Positions 6,515-21,603 of a stretch of 33,595 nucleotides of DNA are shown piece after piece. The stretch comes from a virus, in the IMG/VR virus record IMGVR_UViG_3300009104_000068, positions 1 to 33,595 of that record; one strand, written 5' to 3'. The position numbers were made by a program, and so were the translations under genes. The notes under the pieces are model-generated. The model saw only the letters and a list, made by a program, of their open reading frames with translations, had not been told where the DNA came from and searched no databases. Every line of letters begins with the position of its first letter. Positions within the stretch are counted from its first letter, which is position 1.

Positions 6515-7887
6515 TTTTAACACCAAATGAGATTATAAAACAATCTTTAAAAGAATACAAATTAGGCACATCAAAAGGAAAGAGAAATGAAGTAATTAAA
6601 TATCTTGATTACTATTCAGGCACAGAAACTGAAAAATATATCAACAAATATTTTAATTCTGATGCTTTTCAGGAAATTCCACAATATCAAGCCAATATAA
6701 CCAAAAAATTTATAAACAAGATGTCAAGACTATATACTGTAGGGGCAAAACGAAGCCCTAAGGGTATTTATCAAAAAATGACAAAAGATAAGAACTTTAA
6801 AATGAAACATATTGAAAAAATGACAAAATTGCTTGGAACAATAGCAGTTGGAGTGTTTTTTGAAGAAAAAGACGAAAAAAAGGTCTTTAATTATGTTCCA
6901 GTCTATTATTTTATGCCTTTTTTTGACGATGATATGTTTTCGCCTTATGCAATTACATATCCTAACTTTATGCCAGTAAACGACCCTTACAGTGTGCAGA
7001 AAATGACTTATTCTTACTATGATAGCGAAAAATATATCAAATATGACCAAGATGGCGTTATTTTAGAAGAAACAACTAACCCTTCAGGCGTTTTTCCTTT
7101 TGTTTTCTTCCATAGAGAAGAACAAATTGATTCTTTCTTTGTTGAAGGGGCAAATGATATTATTTCTGCTAACGAACATATCAATATCACTATGACTGAA
7201 ATGCAATTAGGATTACGATACCAAATGTTTGGACAACCTGTTGCTTCAGGGGTAATGGCAGACCAAAACTTAGCAAGAGCAGGTTCTAATGAGATATTAA
7301 TGCTTGGAGATAATGGAAAATTTGAAATTGTATCTCCTTCAGGTAATATTGATGCTGTTATTGAGAATATTAAGCTACAATTAGAACTTGTAGCACTAAA
7401 TAACCACCTATATATCACTTTTTCTGATACAGGTGGAGAAGTTCCTTCAGGAATTGCTTTAAAAATCAAAGATGTAGAAAGAATGGAAGATTATCAAGAC
7501 GATAAAGAGATGTTTAGGCTTTTTGAGTCAAAATTATATGAAAAAGAACATCAAATTGCACAGTTCAATACTATTTCGTTCCCTTCTATAGAACAATTTA
7601 AAATTGACTTCTATGATGTTGAATATCCTATGACAATTCAAGACTCTATCTTGCAAGATGAGTTTGGATTGAAACATAATCTTATAACTGAACCTGATAT
7701 ACTAATGAGAAACAATAAAGACCTCTCATTTGATGGTGCAGTCAAAAAAATCAAAGAAAACAAGGAAATTAACAAGGAATTGAGAAATTTGCCCCCAATG
7801 ATGCTTCAAAACGGAGAAGAAAACGAAGAAAGCGATAAAAACGAAGAAAATCCGTTAGAAAACAATGAAAAAGAAGAAAAAGTATAA
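6511..7887 (+). CDS. Portal protein (SPP1 gp6-like)
   Basis: 458 residues, overlapping the terminase stop by 4 nt. The start (EIIKQSLKEYKLG...EVIKYLDYYSGTET), the YQANITKKFINKMSRLY segment and the long acidic C-terminal tail fit the SPP1-type portal family. It forms the dodecameric ring at the DNA entry vertex and is the docking site for the terminase and later the head-tail connector. The last 30 residues are Glu/Asn/Lys-rich and probably disordered. The following gene begins at the stop codon (TAATG). Confidence 0.88.
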   Translation: MILTPNEIIKQSLKEYKLGTSKGKRNEVIKYLDYYSGTETEKYINKYFNSDAFQEIPQYQANITKKFINKMSRLYTVGAKRSPKGIYQKMTKDKNFKMKHIEKMTKLLGTIAVGVFFEEKDEKKVFNYVPVYYFMPFFDDDMFSPYAITYPNFMPVNDPYSVQKMTYSYYDSEKYIKYDQDGVILEETTNPSGVFPFVFFHREEQIDSFFVEGANDIISANEHINITMTEMQLGLRYQMFGQPVASGVMADQNLARAGSNEILMLGDNGKFEIVSPSGNIDAVIENIKLQLELVALNNHLYITFSDTGGEVPSGIALKIKDVERMEDYQDDKEMFRLFESKLYEKEHQIAQFNTISFPSIEQFKIDFYDVEYPMTIQDSILQDEFGLKHNLITEPDILMRNNKDLSFDGAVKKIKENKEINKELRNLPPMMLQNGEENEESDKNEENPLENNEKEEKV

Positions 7888-8504
7888 TGGAAATGTTTTT
7901 AACAGTGGATTTTGATTTTAAACCCTTAAGAAAAAAACTTCCTTCATTAATGTCTAAAAGAATCAATAAAGATGTTAAATTTGTCAAAAAAAAGATAGAC
8001 GAAGGTATTGATAAAGGTGTTAGTCCTATTACTGGAGAACCTTTTAAACCAATATCTGAAGTAACAAAATATGTAAGAAAGGCAAGAAGAAAAAATACAA
8101 AATCTGATGACAAACCACTTTTTGGAACTGGACAAATGACTAAACTAAAAGTCAAAAAATCGTCAAAGACAAAACTATCTGCGTCTTTAACAATGGGTAG
8201 AGAATATGGTGCTTATCACTTAACGCCTTATATTATTACTAATAATTTTTCCTTAAAAAGAAAAGGGCAAAAAAGAGTTGTTGGAAGAAGGGCGTCAGGT
8301 GGAAGAAGAATAAAAACAACTGGAAAAACAAAAGAATTTATAAAAGCAAAAGGGAAGAAAGTTCCTGCAAGAGTTTGGTTTGGAATACCACAAGACTATA
8401 TAGAAGAAACAAGTTTTAATTGGTTTTTAGATGAAATGAAAATAAGTTTAAAGCAAGGAAAACCGATTATAAGACAGAAAATAGGAAACCTAAGGCTATC
8501 GTAA
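7887..8504 (+). CDS. Virion morphogenesis protein (gpG/HK97 gp10-like)
   Basis: 205 residues, strongly basic. The segment SPITGEPFKPISEVTKYVRKAR followed by KPLFGTGQMTKLKV is the signature of phage virion morphogenesis or tail completion proteins (Mu gpG/HK97 gp10 type), in which a Pro-rich loop precedes a P-L-x-x-T-G motif. A late VPARVWFGIPQDYIEE stretch also matches this family (PxRxFxG). The likely role is head-to-tail joining. Start and stop overlap both neighbours by 1 nt, indicating translational coupling with the portal. Confidence 0.7.
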   Translation: MEMFLTVDFDFKPLRKKLPSLMSKRINKDVKFVKKKIDEGIDKGVSPITGEPFKPISEVTKYVRKARRKNTKSDDKPLFGTGQMTKLKVKKSSKTKLSASLTMGREYGAYHLTPYIITNNFSLKRKGQKRVVGRRASGGRRIKTTGKTKEFIKAKGKKVPARVWFGIPQDYIEETSFNWFLDEMKISLKQGKPIIRQKIGNLRLS

Positions 8505-8731
8505 TGAAGAAAGACATAGAACAGATACTAAAAGAAATAGCTACCTCTTTAAAGCAAATCAAAAAAATTGTTATTGACAACAATCAAATATCGGGATTCA
8601 TAGCATCGCAACAAACACCTCGTTCTCCACATCTCAATAAAGAAGATATAAAATCTATTATGATTACAAGTGAGCAATTAGACTATATGGCAAAAGAAAA
8701 AATTTCTATGAATGTTTGGGGAGATGCTTAG
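8504..8731 (+). CDS. Small helical protein, unknown function
   Basis: 75 residues, last gene of the terminase-portal operon, coupled by a 1-nt overlap. The first 25 residues are predicted helical and Lys-rich (IEQILKEIATSLKQIKKIV). No cysteines or membrane segment. I do not recognise the family. Its 3' end runs 26 nt into the convergent small-terminase gene. The position suggests a minor structural or packaging role, but nothing in the sequence proves it. Confidence 0.65.
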   Translation: MKKDIEQILKEIATSLKQIKKIVIDNNQISGFIASQQTPRSPHLNKEDIKSIMITSEQLDYMAKEKISMNVWGDA

Positions 8732-9275: not shown

Positions 9276-9418
9276 CGTCTTTTCCCCTGTCCTCTATATT
9301 TCTTTTTGTAGTATTTTTTTGAAACCTTTGTGCCACGCTTGGTATTCTTACTATTTCCTTGTCGTGTTTTCTTTGGTCCGTTTGTTTTGCGTGTTTGTCT
9401 TTTAAACAGTCTTCTCAT
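9272..9418 (-). CDS. 48-residue highly basic protein
   Basis: ATG at 9418, stop TGA at 9272-9274. The start overlaps the stop of the zinc-ribbon gene (ATGA), and its stop overlaps the ATG of the small terminase gene (ATGA), so it is coupled on both sides. The product has about 24 Lys/Arg and almost no acidic residues (for example KKYYKKKYRGQGKRR at the C-terminus), with no cysteine. This composition suggests nucleic-acid binding, perhaps with the terminase. No family recognised. The perfect fit between the two neighbours is the main support. Confidence 0.65.
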   Translation of the reverse strand: MRRLFKRQTRKTNGPKKTRQGNSKNTKRGTKVSKKYYKKKYRGQGKRR

Positions 9419-9621
9419 TCGTCTAACTCTTTATATAGTTTCCTATCAGTCATTCGCTTTACTCCTCTACCAACATCATCAGAAATAATCATTGGTTTTG
9501 AAATCAATCGTTTTACCTTTTTCTTTTTTTCGCAAAAGCACTTGGTTAGTTTTTTATCGTTAAACCCTTGATGGCAGTCAAAGTGTTCTCCACAAGAACA
9601 CAGGTATTCGTATGTAGGCAT
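9415..9621 (-). CDS. FmdB-type zinc ribbon protein
   Basis: 68 residues. The start MPTYEYLCSCGEHFDCHQGF is the classic FmdB-family (Zn_ribbon_8) opening, with C-x-C and a later C-x-C (KCFCEKKKK). In the typical family the knuckles are CxxC; here both are CxC, so metal binding may differ. The C-terminal half is basic. The gene starts directly after the holin stop codon (TAAATG) and overlaps the next basic gene. The function in phages is unknown; a small regulatory or DNA-binding role is usually assumed. Confidence 0.75.
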   Translation of the reverse strand: MPTYEYLCSCGEHFDCHQGFNDKKLTKCFCEKKKKVKRLISKPMIISDDVGRGVKRMTDRKLYKELDE

Positions 9622-9990
9622 TTACGCACGACCCTTAACCTTTTCAAAACTACGCATTCCTGCCATTCCGAGCATACCAAATAATACAGTCGTCATTGTA
9701 TTCATATCAAATGTCGGTAAATCAACAGTGTTACCGTTCGCAGCGAAAATGAAAATTAAGAATGGTTGTATTAGATAATGATACCCAAATGCAAAGGACA
9801 ATACCCATCCTAAGAATGGTCGCCAACGCACTAATAAGCCCGTTTGCCCTGCCTCTATTTTATTGACTTCTAATTGGGCTTTATTGATTTCCTGTAATAG
9901 TTCTGCTTTCTCTTGTTTGTCTAAGGTAAAGTCATCTACTCTACCTGCGACCTTATCTATCAGGTTTCCTACGATTTTTAATTTTGACAT
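9622..9990 (-). CDS. Holin (GTA/3TM holin family)
   Basis: 122 residues. An N-terminal amphipathic helical part (KQEKAELLQEINKAQLEVNKIEAGQ) is followed by LLVRWRPFLGWVLSFAFGYHYL, QPFLIFIFAAN and a third hydrophobic stretch MTTVLFGMLGMAGMRSFEK. The RWRPFLGW signature and three hydrophobic segments match the 3-TM holin family found in gene transfer agents and marine phages. It would make the inner-membrane lesions that release the endolysin, whose gene lies 22 kb away in the tail block. A good AGGAGA ribosome site is seen 7 nt before the ATG. Confidence 0.8.
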   Translation of the reverse strand: MSKLKIVGNLIDKVAGRVDDFTLDKQEKAELLQEINKAQLEVNKIEAGQTGLLVRWRPFLGWVLSFAFGYHYLIQPFLIFIFAANGNTVDLPTFDMNTMTTVLFGMLGMAGMRSFEKVKGRA

Positions 9991-10093: not shown

Positions 10094-10243
10094 TTATATC
10101 GCAAATTTACCTATGCGAATTAAATTGTGCAACCTTCTGAATTTTAAATTCCCTTTTGAGGGGTATATACTACCTCTCCTTAGATGCCTGTTTTATACGC
10201 CTTATGCCTTTCCAAATCGCTAATCCTAAGCAATTTGAAACTT

Positions 10244-10323: not shown

Positions 10324-10410
10324 ATTTGAAAAGTGAATTAATTGCCAAGAAAGAGAGGGTAAATCAGGTGTTTAAAATCACAATTTATCACAATTAAAAT
10401 AATGCCTTTC

Positions 10411-10521: not shown

Positions 10522-10809
10522 ATGAAAGAAACAATGAGAGTAATCAACAAACAAAGCAAGACTGAAAAATATTTATTAAACCTAATCTTTTTAGGAATGA
10601 TTTTCAGTTGTGCTTCTATTATTGGAATGGCTTTAAATATGGATATGTCAAATACTTTGCCATTTCCATTTACCTACAATGAGGAATTGATGTTTAGATA
10701 TGCAATGCGATTTTGTGCGTCTGCTTATCCTACATTCTTTTTAATATTGGTTGTAAGTAGACTGCGTATTAAAAGAATAAGAAAACAAAGAATGAATGAG
10801 GTGGCATAA
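10522..10809 (+). CDS. Small membrane protein, two predicted TM segments
   Basis: 95 residues, first gene of the island. Two hydrophobic segments (about residues 18-40, LLNLIFLGMIFSCASIIGMA, and 68-85, ASAYPTFFLILVVSRL) are joined by a loop containing PFPFTYNEE. The C-terminus is basic (RLRIKRIRKQR), suggesting both ends are cytoplasmic. Ribosome site AAGGA. It overlaps the next start by 1 nt (TAATG). I do not recognise the family; it might anchor the amidoligase system at the inner membrane, but this is only inferred from co-transcription. Confidence 0.7.
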   Translation: MKETMRVINKQSKTEKYLLNLIFLGMIFSCASIIGMALNMDMSNTLPFPFTYNEELMFRYAMRFCASAYPTFFLILVVSRLRIKRIRKQRMNEVA

Positions 10810-11066
10810 TGAAAAAGAAATCTTTGGAATATGCTAAAAAAAGTTGGATGGATAATAGTTTAAAAAATACAATGTTAATCAACATAATTAAAAAGAGTTG
10901 TGAAACAACTATTAAAGTAAACCAACAAATAATGGATAGAGAGTTTAAAGACTACGACGGCAGATATTTTGATGAGGAAAGAGAGGAATATACCATTCTT
11001 GAAACTGAAATCCAACAAAGTGAAACGATATTAAATATCATAAAAGAAAATGAGGTGTTAAGATGA
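10809..11066 (+). CDS. Small helical protein of the amidoligase island
   Basis: 85 residues, charged and probably all helical, with a central acidic part (FKDYDGRYFDEEREEY) and a possible coiled coil at the end (TEIQQSETILNIIKENE). No family recognised. It is coupled to both neighbours: a 1-nt overlap upstream and a 4-nt ATGA overlap with the amidoligase. This tight coupling suggests a partner protein, but a catalytic role cannot be shown. Confidence 0.65.
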   Translation: MKKKSLEYAKKSWMDNSLKNTMLINIIKKSCETTIKVNQQIMDREFKDYDGRYFDEEREEYTILETEIQQSETILNIIKENEVLR

Positions 11067-13018
11067 GTAAAAAAGTAGTGGTAAAAAGAAAGAAAAAGTT
11101 AATAGATAATCCATCACATAACTACACTGAATCAGTAGTAGAAATGGCAGTAAAACCACTAATGAGTGTAGTGGGCAGTGAAGTTGGATTTGATAACTTA
11201 ATGAACGATGGTAAAAGGGCAGTTGTTTTGTATGGGCAGTTTAAAAGTGCAAAACTAAAAGATGGTAAAAATGCCTTTCTATTTCCAAATAAATATGAGT
11301 TCAATGCAGTAAATTTAAAAGATGAAACTGATTCACTATTTAAAATCAAATTTGATGAATTATTCAGATGGATGATTAGTGATGATTTTGATTTTGGTAT
11401 GCAAAGATTCAAAAGGAACAAAGCATACTTAAACACTGCAATAGACAATGAATATTCAAGTGAGGGTTTTTCATACGATTCAGACAATACATTAAGAGGA
11501 TTTAACCTTACTAATACAAAAGTAATGGAACTTTCCAAGTCTGAATATGTTGAAAAGTGGTTTCAGTTGGCTAATGTTGAAAAGAATGCTTTTATCTATT
11601 GTTTTAAATCTGATTTTCCAATGATTTATGATTATAGAAATCTTAGTGTGCCTTTTCATATAACCAAGTTGAGAAAAGTTCATTTTTGTAAGCATTGTAA
11701 TTGGTATTATAGAAGTGGGTGCAGATGTGTTAAAAATCATACATTAAAAGGATATGAAAGAACCAATGTTAATGAGATTTTTGATATATCAAACAAGGGC
11801 AAAGTGCATACATTGAATCAAAGAATCGCCAAAAAAGGTGTAGCGACTTTTGGTATTGAATATGAAGTAAATATGCCTAATGAAAATAAAAGTAGAAATG
11901 AACATTCATTAAGCGTCTTTAACTTTATGAAAAACAATAAAATGTATGATTTTTGCCACTTGTTTCAAGATGTAAAAGATGATAGCAGTATTGGTAGAGG
12001 TGCAGAATTTGTTTCATTGCCTTTTACATCTACTTACTATCAGGCAAGGAAAAAGGATTTTGCAAAGTTGTCTAATGCCTTTTTCAATCTTGGAATGCGT
12101 GGTGGCACTAATTGTGGGTTGCACATTCATATTGGTAGAAGTTCTTTCAAGAATGTCTACCACATATATAGATGGTTGAAACTGATGGTTTCAAGCAGTG
12201 AGCAACTAAGGTTGCTAAGTGGTAGAGGTAGAACGCTTAATTATTGTCGCTTTCAAATACCTACTGAATTTAAAAGCAGTAGAATGGAAAGAGTCGCAGA
12301 CAATCTTGGCTATGCTTCAACCTACACTTCATATACTACTGATAAGCAGTTGTTAAGACTTGCTAAGGAAGTATTACTTGGATATCAGGGTGGTGGTAGA
12401 GATTGGATTAATTTCCAAAATGAACGCACTATTGAACTGCGTTTTCCTACTTCAACTACGGATTCAAAGTTGCGTGGCAAAAAACAAGATAATTATGATG
12501 ATTGGAATGAAAAGAAGTATTACAAATTGAATCGTCATATTGAAATGGCAATTGCTATGGTGGAATATTCAAAGGTGTGTGGCATTAATGAAACTGATTT
12601 TCAATCGTTTTTAAATTGGTTGAAAAACGATTGCCACACTTACAACAATCTATTCTATGGAATCTTAGACAAAGATGAAATCTTAGAAATTACTTTTAAG
12701 AACTCTAAGAAAGTGAAATTGTTTATGCGTGGAATAGGGCAGATTAACGATGTGGATATTACCAACATTAACGCAATTAGGGATATGAGCCAAAGAGCAA
12801 TGATTTTTGCAGACTCTATTGAATCTTTAAGTAAAGAATCAAGTGAGGATATTTCAAAAGAAATTGCAGATTTCAAAAAGCCAAAAACAAAGAAAAAAGC
12901 AGTGAAAAAAAAGTTGAGCAGCGTGGATCTTGTGGGCTTGACGACAAAAACCAAAAAAAACGACAAAAAAAACGCAGAATGTGTGTTAAGTCAAAACCAA
13001 GAAAGTGAGGTGGAATAA
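11063..13018 (+). CDS. Putative amidoligase (glutamine synthetase-like COOH-NH2 ligase)
   Basis: 651 residues. The catalytic core, about 260-480, shows FGIEYEVNMP (263-272), DDSSIGRGAEFVSLPF (306-320), NCGLHIHIGRSSF (350-362) and HIYRWLKL (about 367), the order and spacing of acidic and His motifs known from the Amidoligase_2 family. These glutamine-synthetase-fold enzymes are predicted to join an amine or ammonia to a carboxyl group using ATP. Before the core lies a zinc-ribbon-like C-x2-C-x7-C-x-C (209-222). The first 200 residues are unrecognised, and the last 50 are a Lys-rich tail. A class II glutaminase follows by a TAATG overlap and would supply ammonia. The substrate is unknown: envelope peptide, host protein and phage protein are all possible. 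Confidence 0.8.
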   Translation: MSKKVVVKRKKKLIDNPSHNYTESVVEMAVKPLMSVVGSEVGFDNLMNDGKRAVVLYGQFKSAKLKDGKNAFLFPNKYEFNAVNLKDETDSLFKIKFDELFRWMISDDFDFGMQRFKRNKAYLNTAIDNEYSSEGFSYDSDNTLRGFNLTNTKVMELSKSEYVEKWFQLANVEKNAFIYCFKSDFPMIYDYRNLSVPFHITKLRKVHFCKHCNWYYRSGCRCVKNHTLKGYERTNVNEIFDISNKGKVHTLNQRIAKKGVATFGIEYEVNMPNENKSRNEHSLSVFNFMKNNKMYDFCHLFQDVKDDSSIGRGAEFVSLPFTSTYYQARKKDFAKLSNAFFNLGMRGGTNCGLHIHIGRSSFKNVYHIYRWLKLMVSSSEQLRLLSGRGRTLNYCRFQIPTEFKSSRMERVADNLGYASTYTSYTTDKQLLRLAKEVLLGYQGGGRDWINFQNERTIELRFPTSTTDSKLRGKKQDNYDDWNEKKYYKLNRHIEMAIAMVEYSKVCGINETDFQSFLNWLKNDCHTYNNLFYGILDKDEILEITFKNSKKVKLFMRGIGQINDVDITNINAIRDMSQRAMIFADSIESLSKESSEDISKEIADFKKPKTKKKAVKKKLSSVDLVGLTTKTKKNDKKNAECVLSQNQESEVE

Positions 13019-13659
13019 TGTGTGTAGCAGTATTAAAACCAAAAGGAAAAAGAATATCTAAAAAAATGCTTACTAATATGGTTGATTCAAATCAAGATGG
13101 CAATGGGATTGCCTATGCTTTGAAAGGCAAGTTGTATGTGCATAAAGAAATGCGTAAAACTGCATTTATCAAATTAGTGATGAAGTTGCAAAGGGTGTTG
13201 CCTGATGTCAATATGATGATTCATTGTAGGATTGCCACAAGTGGCACTAATCCTGACAAGATGATTGATAATTGCCATCCTTTTGCAGTAAGCAAAGATG
13301 TTGTGTTTTGTCATAATGGGATTTTATCCAATGTAAGACAAGATAACGACATCTCAGACACAAGGTATTTCAATATGGATATACTTCAAGAACTTCCATT
13401 TAAGTTTGGCAACAAAGCACAATTAAAACTGATTGAGGATTTCATTGGAAGTAGCAAGATGATATTTCTTAAATCTGATGGAAGTTATTCAATAGTGAAT
13501 GAGAGGTTAGGCAGTTGGAATAAAGGAAGTTGGTTTTCTAATCTACATCACTGCACAATGAGTCAAGGCATTGTATATCACAATGTCAGTTCTTATGGGC
13601 AGTTGTATCAATGGGATTCACAACAAGATGAAAAAGATGAAAAGAAAGGTGGTTTGTAA
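13018..13659 (+). CDS. Class II glutamine amidotransferase
   Basis: 213 residues starting Met-Cys, so Cys2 would become the N-terminal nucleophile of an Ntn hydrolase after Met removal. Other family motifs: GNGIAYA (28-34), HCRIATSG (69-76), NCHPF (85-89) and HNGIL (99-103), which hold and orient glutamine. This matches glutaminase domains of the GATase_6/Gn-AT_II type, without any synthetase domain of its own. It should hydrolyse glutamine to release ammonia, for the amidoligase encoded immediately upstream (1-nt overlap). The gene ends in an Asp/Lys-rich tail and is followed by a strong terminator. Confidence 0.88.
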   Translation: MCVAVLKPKGKRISKKMLTNMVDSNQDGNGIAYALKGKLYVHKEMRKTAFIKLVMKLQRVLPDVNMMIHCRIATSGTNPDKMIDNCHPFAVSKDVVFCHNGILSNVRQDNDISDTRYFNMDILQELPFKFGNKAQLKLIEDFIGSSKMIFLKSDGSYSIVNERLGSWNKGSWFSNLHHCTMSQGIVYHNVSSYGQLYQWDSQQDEKDEKKGGL

Positions 13660-13702
13660 GTTGTAGCAGTGGTGGGCAGAAATTTTGCCTTTCATAAAAA
13701 AG

Positions 13703-13735
13703 AGAGTGCCATTAATTTGGCACTCTTTTTTTTTT
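13703..13735 (+). terminator. Intrinsic terminator of the amidoligase island
   Basis: Perfect 8-bp stem AGAGTGCC/GGCACTCT with an 8-nt AT loop, followed by a ten-T run. An A-run precedes the stem, so it could also act on leftward transcripts. It lies 43 nt after the amidotransferase stop and closes the island as a self-contained transcription unit. Confidence 0.9.
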
Positions 13736-14011
13736 GCCTATACTTTGTATGCCTAATCAAAAGAAAGTGCGTTTAAGGGCTATTTTAGGGCTTTTAAATG
13801 GCATAAATCGTTCATATTCTATCACAATATATCATAAATCGCTTAAAATGGTGCTTAATCAGGGTTTTTTTTGTATGTGCAAAATGTAGTGAGTAGCAGT
13901 AAGAGTGGCGTATTTTTGCCTTTCAGTAGTTTTAAAGTGTATAACCAAAACAAAATAAAGAAAACATCTAAAAAGATGAAAGGTAAAACGCACTTTTGAT
14001 TTTTTAAAGTG

Positions 14012-20039: not shown

Positions 20040-20387
20040 ATGATAAATTCACAACAAAAAGGAAAGAGAGCAGAAAGAGAAGTCGCTAAAATTATAAACA
20101 AATACTTGGGAACAAATGTTAGGAGAACCCCCTCGTCAGGTGGACTTAGTATAAAGGGCGACATTATAGATATTAACCCTGATAGTGTTGCGTTTGATTT
20201 TCACTTTGAGATAAAAAATACAAAGAAATTATCTATTCCGAAATGGTGGAAACAAATTTATTCAGATTGTGGTAGAAAAATTCCTATTAATATATTTAAA
20301 ATGAATGCTAAATTCTATGCAACTATGGAACTTACTGATTGGTTAAACATATTAGCAGAAATGCAGGAACTAAAAGATGGAGTATGA
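20040..20387 (+). CDS. PD-(D/E)XK nuclease, Holliday-junction resolvase-like
   Basis: 115 residues. The start NSQQKGKRAEREVAKIINKY, the RRTPSSGG loop, Asp41 in KGDI and Glu57-x-Lys59 in FHFEIKNTKK form the catalytic pattern of Hjc/RecU-like junction resolvases and related restriction-fold nucleases. It would cut branched recombination or replication intermediates before packaging. Length is in the family range. Overlaps the next gene by 11 nt. Confidence 0.75.
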   Translation: MINSQQKGKRAEREVAKIINKYLGTNVRRTPSSGGLSIKGDIIDINPDSVAFDFHFEIKNTKKLSIPKWWKQIYSDCGRKIPINIFKMNAKFYATMELTDWLNILAEMQELKDGV

Positions 20388-21603
20388 CAATAGAGTTTTA
20401 GTTTGTCCAAGTTGTAATTCAAGCAAAGTAAGACGCAATGGATTTCATCGTGGACTCGCAGGAAAGAAACAAAGATACCTATGCACAGATTGTAATACAA
20501 AAACATCCTACCCTATTTTTTTAGATAGAGAAGTTATAGAGGAGAATGTTAGGCTTGAAACAAGAAGTCAGAAACTTCAAGACTTAAACAGAATAAAAAA
20601 CAAATCTTTTAGAGAACACGCAAGAATCAACAATGCTCTTTCTGAATACAATAAAGAACTAATAAAGATATTAAAAGAGTTTCCTATAAAAAGATATAAA
20701 CCTATTGATACAAGAGGCTCAAAAGGTGTCGGACTAATACAATTATCTGATTTACACTTCAACGAACTTGTTTCAATGGAATCAAACAAATATGATTTTG
20801 ATGTTGCGTCAAAGCGACTACGAACATTTATCAGAAAGGCAAAGAAATACTTTAAGGCGTTTGGTGTAAAAAAGGTTTTTGTTGGGATTACAGGCGACTT
20901 GTTAAATTCGGATAGGCGATTAGACGAGTTATTGTCTGAGGCAACAAATAGGGCAAGTGCAACATTTATAGCAGTTGAAATACTAAAACAAGTTTTAGAC
21001 GACATAAGACAAGACTTCCAAACAAGCGTTGGTTGTGTAAGTGGGAATGAAAGCAGAATACAAAAAGAAATAGGTTGGGCAGATGTTGTTGCGTCTGATA
21101 ATTATGACAACACAATATACAACATATTAAGATGTGTTTATAAAGAGAAGTCTGATGTAGAGTTTTATGAAATGGAAAATTCATTAGAGTTGGTTGTAGA
21201 AATTGCAAGGCAAAAGGTTCTTCTAATTCACGGGCATCAATTTAAGGGTAAGATAGAAAACTTTATCCAACTAACGAAAGGCAGATATTCTTCCGTTGGG
21301 GTAAACTTAGATTATATTATATTAGGACATATTCATTCTGCAAGAATAGGCGATACCTATGGTAGAAGTTCCTCGCTTGTTGGTGCTAATTCCTATTCTG
21401 AAAAAGCACTAAACTTAGAGGGGAGAGCAAGCCAAAACATTTATTTATTCTTTAACAATGGAACAAGGGATTCTGTTAAGATTGATTTACAAAATTATGA
21501 TGAAAAAGGGTATGACATTACAAAAGACTTAGAAGCATATAACTCTAAGTCGCATAACAAGGATATGAAAGGCAAAGAAATACTTAGAATCGTTACAATA
21601 TAA
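20377..21603 (+). CDS. Zinc ribbon-metallophosphoesterase fusion
   Basis: 408 residues. Residues 9-45 are an InsA-like zinc ribbon (CPSCNSSKVRRNG...YLCTDCNTKTS). A helical linker follows to about 105. A calcineurin-type phosphoesterase occupies about 118-370: LSDLHF (122-127), GITGDLLNS (about 169-177), GNES (about 221-224, in place of GNHE), LIHGHQF (about 283) and LGHIHS (about 316). These residues bind two metal ions. It may be a DNA repair or exonuclease enzyme of the SbcD/Mre11 general type, targeted to DNA by the ribbon. No SbcC-like partner is seen. Confidence 0.8.
   Translation: MEYDNRVLVCPSCNSSKVRRNGFHRGLAGKKQRYLCTDCNTKTSYPIFLDREVIEENVRLETRSQKLQDLNRIKNKSFREHARINNALSEYNKELIKILKEFPIKRYKPIDTRGSKGVGLIQLSDLHFNELVSMESNKYDFDVASKRLRTFIRKAKKYFKAFGVKKVFVGITGDLLNSDRRLDELLSEATNRASATFIAVEILKQVLDDIRQDFQTSVGCVSGNESRIQKEIGWADVVASDNYDNTIYNILRCVYKEKSDVEFYEMENSLELVVEIARQKVLLIHGHQFKGKIENFIQLTKGRYSSVGVNLDYIILGHIHSARIGDTYGRSSSLVGANSYSEKALNLEGRASQNIYLFFNNGTRDSVKIDLQNYDEKGYDITKDLEAYNSKSHNKDMKGKEILRIVTI

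What the first reader, a model, noticed from the sequence alone, without database searches (positions are those of the whole stretch)
10522..13659. Self-contained amidoligase + class II glutaminase island
Seen: four tightly coupled genes (two-TM protein, helical protein, amidoligase with zinc ribbon, Cys2 glutaminase) with their own promoter and strong terminator. Known: Amidoligase_2 enzymes are glutamine-synthetase-like COOH-NH2 ligases, and class II glutaminases release ammonia; MurT/GatD is a two-protein analogue that amidates peptidoglycan precursors. Inference: the pair amidates a carboxyl on an envelope peptide or host protein, perhaps for exclusion of other phages or resistance to lysis. 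The two small genes may be partners. I know of no described system with this exact gene set.
Basis: partly seen in the sequence, partly recalled or inferred. Interest (0 to 1): 0.85.

Follow-up and report, generated by a model that had tools for sequence, protein, structure and literature searches.

The report
Phage amide-making enzyme pair
A phage carries two neighbouring genes for enzymes that would take ammonia from glutamine and attach it to an acid group on some peptide; this pair is already known from many phages, and what is new here is mainly its extreme diversity at one fixed genome position and a small membrane protein that often accompanies it.

Summary
Four tightly coupled + strand ORFs lie at 10522-13659 and end in a very strong hairpin terminator; "own promoter" is not supported above chance.

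ORF3 is a divergent glutamine-synthetase-like amidoligase with its active-site residues and a conserved Cys4 ribbon. ORF4 is an intact class II glutaminase.

The two enzymes form a real unit. In IMG/VR, 49 of 53 glutaminase clusters have the amidoligase immediately upstream, 43 of them within 30 bp.

The pair is not new. It was proposed for phages by Iyer 2009 and is annotated in OM43 phages, LUZ24-like phages, mycobacteriophage Marvin and Pseudoalteromonas phages ("peptidoglycan modification cassette"), with the same superinfection-exclusion idea.

The gene set must be cut. ORF2 has close homologues in phage loci without the enzymes and looks like a hitchhiker. ORF1, a two-TM protein, is a recurrent but optional partner, found at the same position in 8 of 13 related phages.

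The new point: phages sharing 85-98% terminase identity carry the pair in one fixed slot with mostly 22-55% identical amidoligases. Low dN/dS and raised synonymous divergence suggest exchange of divergent alleles. The substrate is undetermined; an envelope peptide is the best guess.

The parts
10522..10809 (+). ORF1, 95-aa protein with two predicted transmembrane segments and a basic C-terminal tail; optional membrane partner
   Evidence: positional analogues of about 78-100 aa with 2 or more TM segments directly upstream of the amidoligase in 8 of 13 related phages; sequence very divergent (10-23% identity to ORF1); dN/dS 0.18 and 0.32 between close pairs
10809..11066 (+). ORF2, 85-aa charged protein, probably an unrelated gene that landed in the operon
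   Evidence: 65-72% identical homologues in 5 viral contigs without amidoligase or glutaminase in the held DNA; absent from the relatives' operons
11063..13018 (+). ORF3, 651-aa GS-like amidoligase: variable N-terminal domain, Cys4 ribbon (residues 209-222), catalytic core (about 262-505), helical C-terminus and basic tail
   Evidence: Pfam Amidoligase_2; invariant E266, E268, D307, E315, G352, H354, R388, E458, R460; Foldseek: viral amidoligases E 6e-15, YbdK 1r8g E 5.8e-4, then glutamine synthetases
13018..13659 (+). ORF4, 213-aa class II (Ntn) glutaminase with Cys2 nucleophile
   Evidence: GATase_4; C2, H69, R71, T74, G76, H99, N100, G101, D114 present in every relative that covers the position; Foldseek GlmS glutaminase domain E 6e-5
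13703..13735 (+). intrinsic terminator closing the operon (hairpin flanked by A and T runs)
   Evidence: stretch 13690-13740: -23 kcal/mol, z -7.2
10103..10214 (.). conserved non-coding stretch upstream of the operon; DNA similarity between relatives ends here and the variable enzyme slot begins
   Evidence: window matches at 10103-10166 and 10104-10214; L011 relatives break at 10367-10374

Best explanation
ORF3 and ORF4 are a two-subunit, glutamine-dependent amide ligase. ORF4 hydrolyses glutamine and hands the ammonia to ORF3, which uses ATP to activate a carboxylate and form an amide. It is probably made early in infection. Its most likely target is an acidic group on an envelope peptide, such as a peptidoglycan stem peptide or its membrane-bound precursor, changing the surface so that competing phages or lysins act less well. 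In this lineage the small two-TM protein (ORF1) probably holds the pair at the membrane or presents the substrate. ORF2 is not part of the machine. Shown here: the gene pair, conserved active-site residues, coupling, low dN/dS and extreme allelic diversity in a fixed slot. Inferred from families: the chemistry. Inferred more weakly: timing, envelope target, exclusion role and the ORF1 role.
For: Family and fold matches for both enzymes. Active-site residues invariant among relatives mostly only 22-55% identical. 49 of 53 glutaminase clusters have the amidoligase immediately upstream, 43 with a gap of 30 bp or less. Purifying selection: amidoligase dN/dS 0.07-0.32 in three pairs. The operon is the first one on the + strand after the divergent holin and terS genes and lies ahead of a DnaD-like helicase loader and an exonuclease; in MEP401 the pair also precedes primase, helicase and polymerase. 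A two-TM gene sits directly upstream in 8 of 13 related phages. Published predictions for homologous cassettes: PMC5498523, PMC10580990, PMC11318856.
Against: I found no substrate reported for any phage member. Five related phages lack the two-TM gene. No peptidoglycan-specific enzyme lies beside the pair, and it has no ATP-grasp or gamma-glutamyl cyclotransferase partner as in phiM6 or LUZ24-like phages. The structure models have low mean confidence (pLDDT 61 and 54). No physical interaction between the two enzymes was tested and no fused form was seen.
Confidence: 0.45

Rival explanations
1. Same chemistry, but the target is a host or phage protein (for example a side-chain or C-terminal carboxyl) and the purpose is host takeover or evasion of defence.
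For: Related GS-fold and ATP-grasp ligases modify proteins (own knowledge; ATP-grasp predictions in PMC7824862). The Cys4 ribbon and the variable N-terminal domain look like parts for recognising a macromolecular substrate. Strong allelic diversity fits an arms race.
Against: No protein target is suggested by the neighbours; the two-TM partner points to the membrane; PADLOC finds nothing.
Confidence: 0.22
2. The pair serves nitrogen or amino-acid metabolism during infection (an auxiliary metabolic gene set).
For: Proposed for Phage-ZRK32, whose genes for amidoligase, glutamine amidotransferase, glutathione synthase and GGCT were said to aid nitrogen use (PMC10945688).
Against: A metabolic enzyme would be expected to be conserved; here the amidoligase drops to 22-55% identity in phages with 72-94% identical portals. 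No GGCT or glutathione-synthase-like gene was recognised next to the operon.
Confidence: 0.1
3. A peptide-maturation system in which the two-TM protein or another small peptide is itself the substrate that is amidated or ligated.
For: A small hypervariable gene directly precedes the ligase in 8 of 13 phages.
Against: It is missing in five phages that keep both enzymes; it has membrane-hairpin features and no conserved acidic core position.
Confidence: 0.07
4. A DNA-base hypermodification step.
For: Some phage base modifications attach amino compounds (own knowledge), and the genes lie in the presumed early, replication-linked region.
Against: No base-modifying or nucleotide hydroxymethylation gene was recognised among the window proteins scanned.
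Confidence: 0.04

Closest known systems
Amidoligase + GATase pair of OM43 phages MEP401/MEP402 (PF12224 + PF13522; PMC10580990)
   Same: Same gene order and tight overlap; amidoligase 24% identical by BLAST with Cys pairs before the core, glutaminase 40-41% identical
   Different: No two-TM gene upstream (a 58-aa gene with no predicted TM instead); longer glutaminase (289-291 aa); unrelated phage type (Zobellviridae)
Mycobacteriophage Marvin group gp105-gp106
   Same: Adjacent amidoligase and class II glutaminase (24% identity for the best amidoligase segments in group members, 27-29% for the glutaminase)
   Different: No two-TM hairpin protein directly upstream; different genome position
Peptidoglycan modification cassette of Pseudoalteromonas phage PSA-HP1, RIO-1, phiEco32 and LUZ24-like phages (PMC5498523, PMC3890496; Iyer 2009)
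   Same: GS-like amidoligase and glutamine amidotransferase in the early/replication region; predicted superinfection exclusion
   Different: Larger sets with ATP-grasp ligase, gamma-glutamyl cyclotransferase and a second ligase; here only the two enzymes
MurT/GatD (own knowledge)
   Same: Two-protein glutamine-dependent amidation, possible envelope target
   Different: Mur ligase fold with class I glutaminase; not homologous to either enzyme here
YbdK (PDB 1r8g) and glutamine synthetase
   Same: Fold of the catalytic core
   Different: YbdK is a stand-alone ligase; GS uses free ammonia (own knowledge)

Membership tests
Amidoligase_2 (GS-like COOH-NH2 ligases) | profile match | tested here: met
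   E=0.0012 on the whole protein, below cut-off; over the cut-off with its neighbours in the frame; 7 of 10 relatives match, best 2.8e-10
Amidoligase_2 (GS-like COOH-NH2 ligases) | catalytic acidic pair, H and ExR motifs | tested here: met
   E266/E268, D307, E315, H354, E458, R460 invariant in A1 and A3
Amidoligase_2 (GS-like COOH-NH2 ligases) | GS-like fold | tested here: met
   Foldseek YbdK E 5.8e-4 and glutamine synthetases at 2e-3 or weaker, from a modest-confidence model with low TM-scores
Amidoligase_2 (GS-like COOH-NH2 ligases) | ATP-dependent amide formation | not testable with these tools
   needs biochemistry
Class II glutamine amidotransferase | N-terminal Cys after Met removal, R71/N100/G101/D114 equivalents | tested here: met
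   C2 in 51 of 51 aligned representatives; the others invariant where aligned
Class II glutamine amidotransferase | Ntn fold | tested here: met
   GlmS glutaminase domain, Foldseek E 6e-5; mean model confidence 54
Phage amidoligase-GATase cassette | both genes adjacent and co-occurring | tested here: met
   49 of 53 clusters paired; all closely related phages that reach the locus
Phage amidoligase-GATase cassette (phiEco32/LUZ24/PSA-HP1 large form) | ATP-grasp ligase and GGCT in the same block | tested here: not met
   Not found in or next to the operon; present in phiM6 and LUZ24-like phages
MurT/GatD | Mur ligase fold plus class I glutaminase | tested here: not met
   GS-like ligase and class II glutaminase

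The most novel reading that the evidence does not exclude
The pair is a membrane-associated system built around the two-TM protein, kept in a fixed slot whose alleles are exchanged so that each phage makes a different amide mark on its host envelope, giving type-specific superinfection exclusion comparable to serotype-converting cassettes.
Probability: 0.15. Interest if true: 0.75.

Novelty: new member of a known kind. Interest (0 to 1): 0.38.

Why it matters
The amidoligase-glutaminase pair has been reported in many phage genomes for over 15 years with no demonstrated substrate that I could find. This lineage offers a minimal version, two enzymes plus an optional membrane protein, with a natural panel of highly divergent alleles that keep their active sites in otherwise similar phages. 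That makes the substrate and exclusion question testable by allele comparison and muropeptide analysis in laboratory strains.

Tried and rejected
A single-sequence scan of viral contigs with the amidoligase found nothing; terminase relatives and family alignments worked. The eight-sequence alignment A2 had no stretch conserved enough to scan with. ORF1 has no detectable sequence homologues, so its recurrence rests on position, size and hydropathy. Mantel test: the amidoligase-glutaminase correlation (r 0.73) is not clearly above portal-amidoligase (0.66), so I do not claim that the pair moves independently of the backbone. Positive selection across the whole gene is not supported as the cause of divergence: dN/dS is well below 1 and dS is raised. 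Promoter claim rejected. No fused forms. Two genome-search runs failed by rule: relatives of a virus record, and a locus id as centre. Iyer 2009 itself is not held, so it is cited through later papers. In one search the L060/L062 amidoligase comparison used a wrong frame and is disregarded.

Full report
What is there. The window is a linear 33,595-base virus record from IMG/VR. Between the holin gene (9622-9990, - strand; phrog_3427 E 1e-20) and the next + strand gene lie four coupled ORFs: ORF1 10522-10809, ORF2 10809-11066, ORF3 11063-13018 and ORF4 13018-13659. A hairpin with A/T runs follows (13690-13740: -23 kcal/mol, z -7.2). Promoter-like matches are no more common than in shuffled sequence. 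The operon is the first on the + strand after the divergent terS and holin genes, and is followed by a DnaD-like helicase loader and an exonuclease. From this order I infer early expression.

The enzymes. ORF3 matches Amidoligase_2. In alignments with relatives the GxExE, DxS, GxE, GxH and ExR positions are kept, and so is the Cys4 ribbon within the lineage. A modest-confidence model (mean pLDDT 61, better in the core) finds viral amidoligases (E 6e-15) and YbdK/glutamine synthetase. ORF4 matches GATase_4; the nucleophile Cys2 and the R, N, G and D active-site residues are kept in every relative that covers them, and its model matches the GlmS glutaminase domain.

Relatives. A terminase scan gave 46 loci. 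Every close relative (terminase 85% or more) that reaches the locus has the two enzymes in the same place. A scan with the glutaminase alignment gave 70 viral loci; after clustering at 95%, 49 of 53 glutaminases (window included) have the amidoligase directly upstream, most overlapping or within 30 bp. So the two enzymes are a unit. Two of the four exceptions are extra glutaminase copies beside a paired one, and the other two may have amidoligases too divergent for the profile. A limitation is that the scan was seeded with glutaminases from this family.

The small genes. ORF1 has no sequence homologues, but a protein of about 78-100 aa with at least two predicted TM segments sits directly upstream of the amidoligase in 8 of 13 related phages (window, L011, L014, L023, L062, L024/L051, L049/L053, L052) and not in five (L010, L012, L013, L054/L064, L009). 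Close pairs show dN/dS of 0.18 and 0.32, so it is probably a real gene. It is not seen with the pair in MEP401, Marvin or other distant phages. ORF2 has 65-72% identical homologues over about 52 residues in five viral contigs that show no amidoligase or glutaminase in the DNA held, and it is not in the relatives' operons. I therefore remove ORF2 from the system and treat ORF1 as an optional partner.

Diversity in a fixed slot. Across related phages, portal identity is 72-94% while amidoligase identity is 22-55% and glutaminase identity mostly 37-69% (closer pairs exist: L024/L051 at 98%, L049/L052 at 75%, and the L060/L062 glutaminases at 98%). L011 and L023 align at 88% DNA identity over about 7 kb up to position 10369, after which the enzyme region no longer aligns. 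For L011/L014 and L049/L052, amidoligase dS is 1.4-1.6 against 0.3-0.7 for backbone genes; amidoligase dN/dS is 0.07 (L024/L051), 0.11 (L049/L052) and 0.32 (L011/L014, near saturation). Raised synonymous divergence with purifying selection points to exchange of old alleles rather than rapid adaptive change. Saturation limits this, and amidoligase distance still correlates with portal distance, so the point is suggestive only. Other genes (the 822-aa, 205-aa and 75-aa genes) are variable too.

What is known. Glutamine amidotransferase plus amidoligase genes are reported in OM43 phages (PMC10580990), LUZ24-like phages (PMC3890496), Pseudomonas phage tf (PMC3517423), PSA-HP1 and other podoviruses as a "peptidoglycan modification cassette" proposed to block superinfection (PMC5498523), and Phage-ZRK32 with a nitrogen-metabolism reading (PMC10945688). 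The functional predictions trace mainly to Iyer et al. 2009, which is not held. I found no paper in the searches made that identifies a substrate. The finding is therefore a new member of a known kind, in its minimal two-enzyme form, with a lineage-specific membrane partner.

Mechanism and confidence. Glutamine hydrolysis by ORF4 feeding an ATP-dependent amidation by ORF3 is about 0.8 likely on family grounds. That the target is an envelope peptide is about 0.45 overall, and that the purpose is exclusion is lower. No step has been shown biochemically.

Noticed in passing
L145 8001-8582 (Helicobacter saguini contig NZ_JRMP02000004.1): A homologous class II glutaminase (37% identical) with no recognisable amidoligase next to it; it directly follows a 235-aa gene and a 78-aa winged-helix-like (HARE-HTH-like, from memory) gene. 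Possibly a stand-alone or defence-linked use of the glutaminase.
   Followed up: partly
window 7887-8731: Two genes between portal and terS (205 and 75 aa) are also unusually divergent among relatives (about 43-51% and 26-40%) while the flanking portal and terS are 68-85% identical.
   Followed up: no
window 10103-10214; L011 9955-10374: A conserved non-coding stretch in the divergent region upstream of the operon (81-88% between L011 and several relatives), the last conserved DNA before the variable enzyme slot; possible regulatory region or recombination anchor.
   Followed up: no
window 9415-9621: Small 68-aa protein that looks like an FmdB-type zinc ribbon (from memory) next to the holin; matched in several relatives.
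   Followed up: no
window 20377-21603: Phage exonuclease (phrog_284) carrying an N-terminal stretch that resembles the InsA zinc ribbon of transposition proteins (E 1.2e-4, below the Pfam cut-off).
   Followed up: no
L119, L121, L122: Phage contigs with two class II glutaminase genes flanking one amidoligase on both sides.
   Followed up: no
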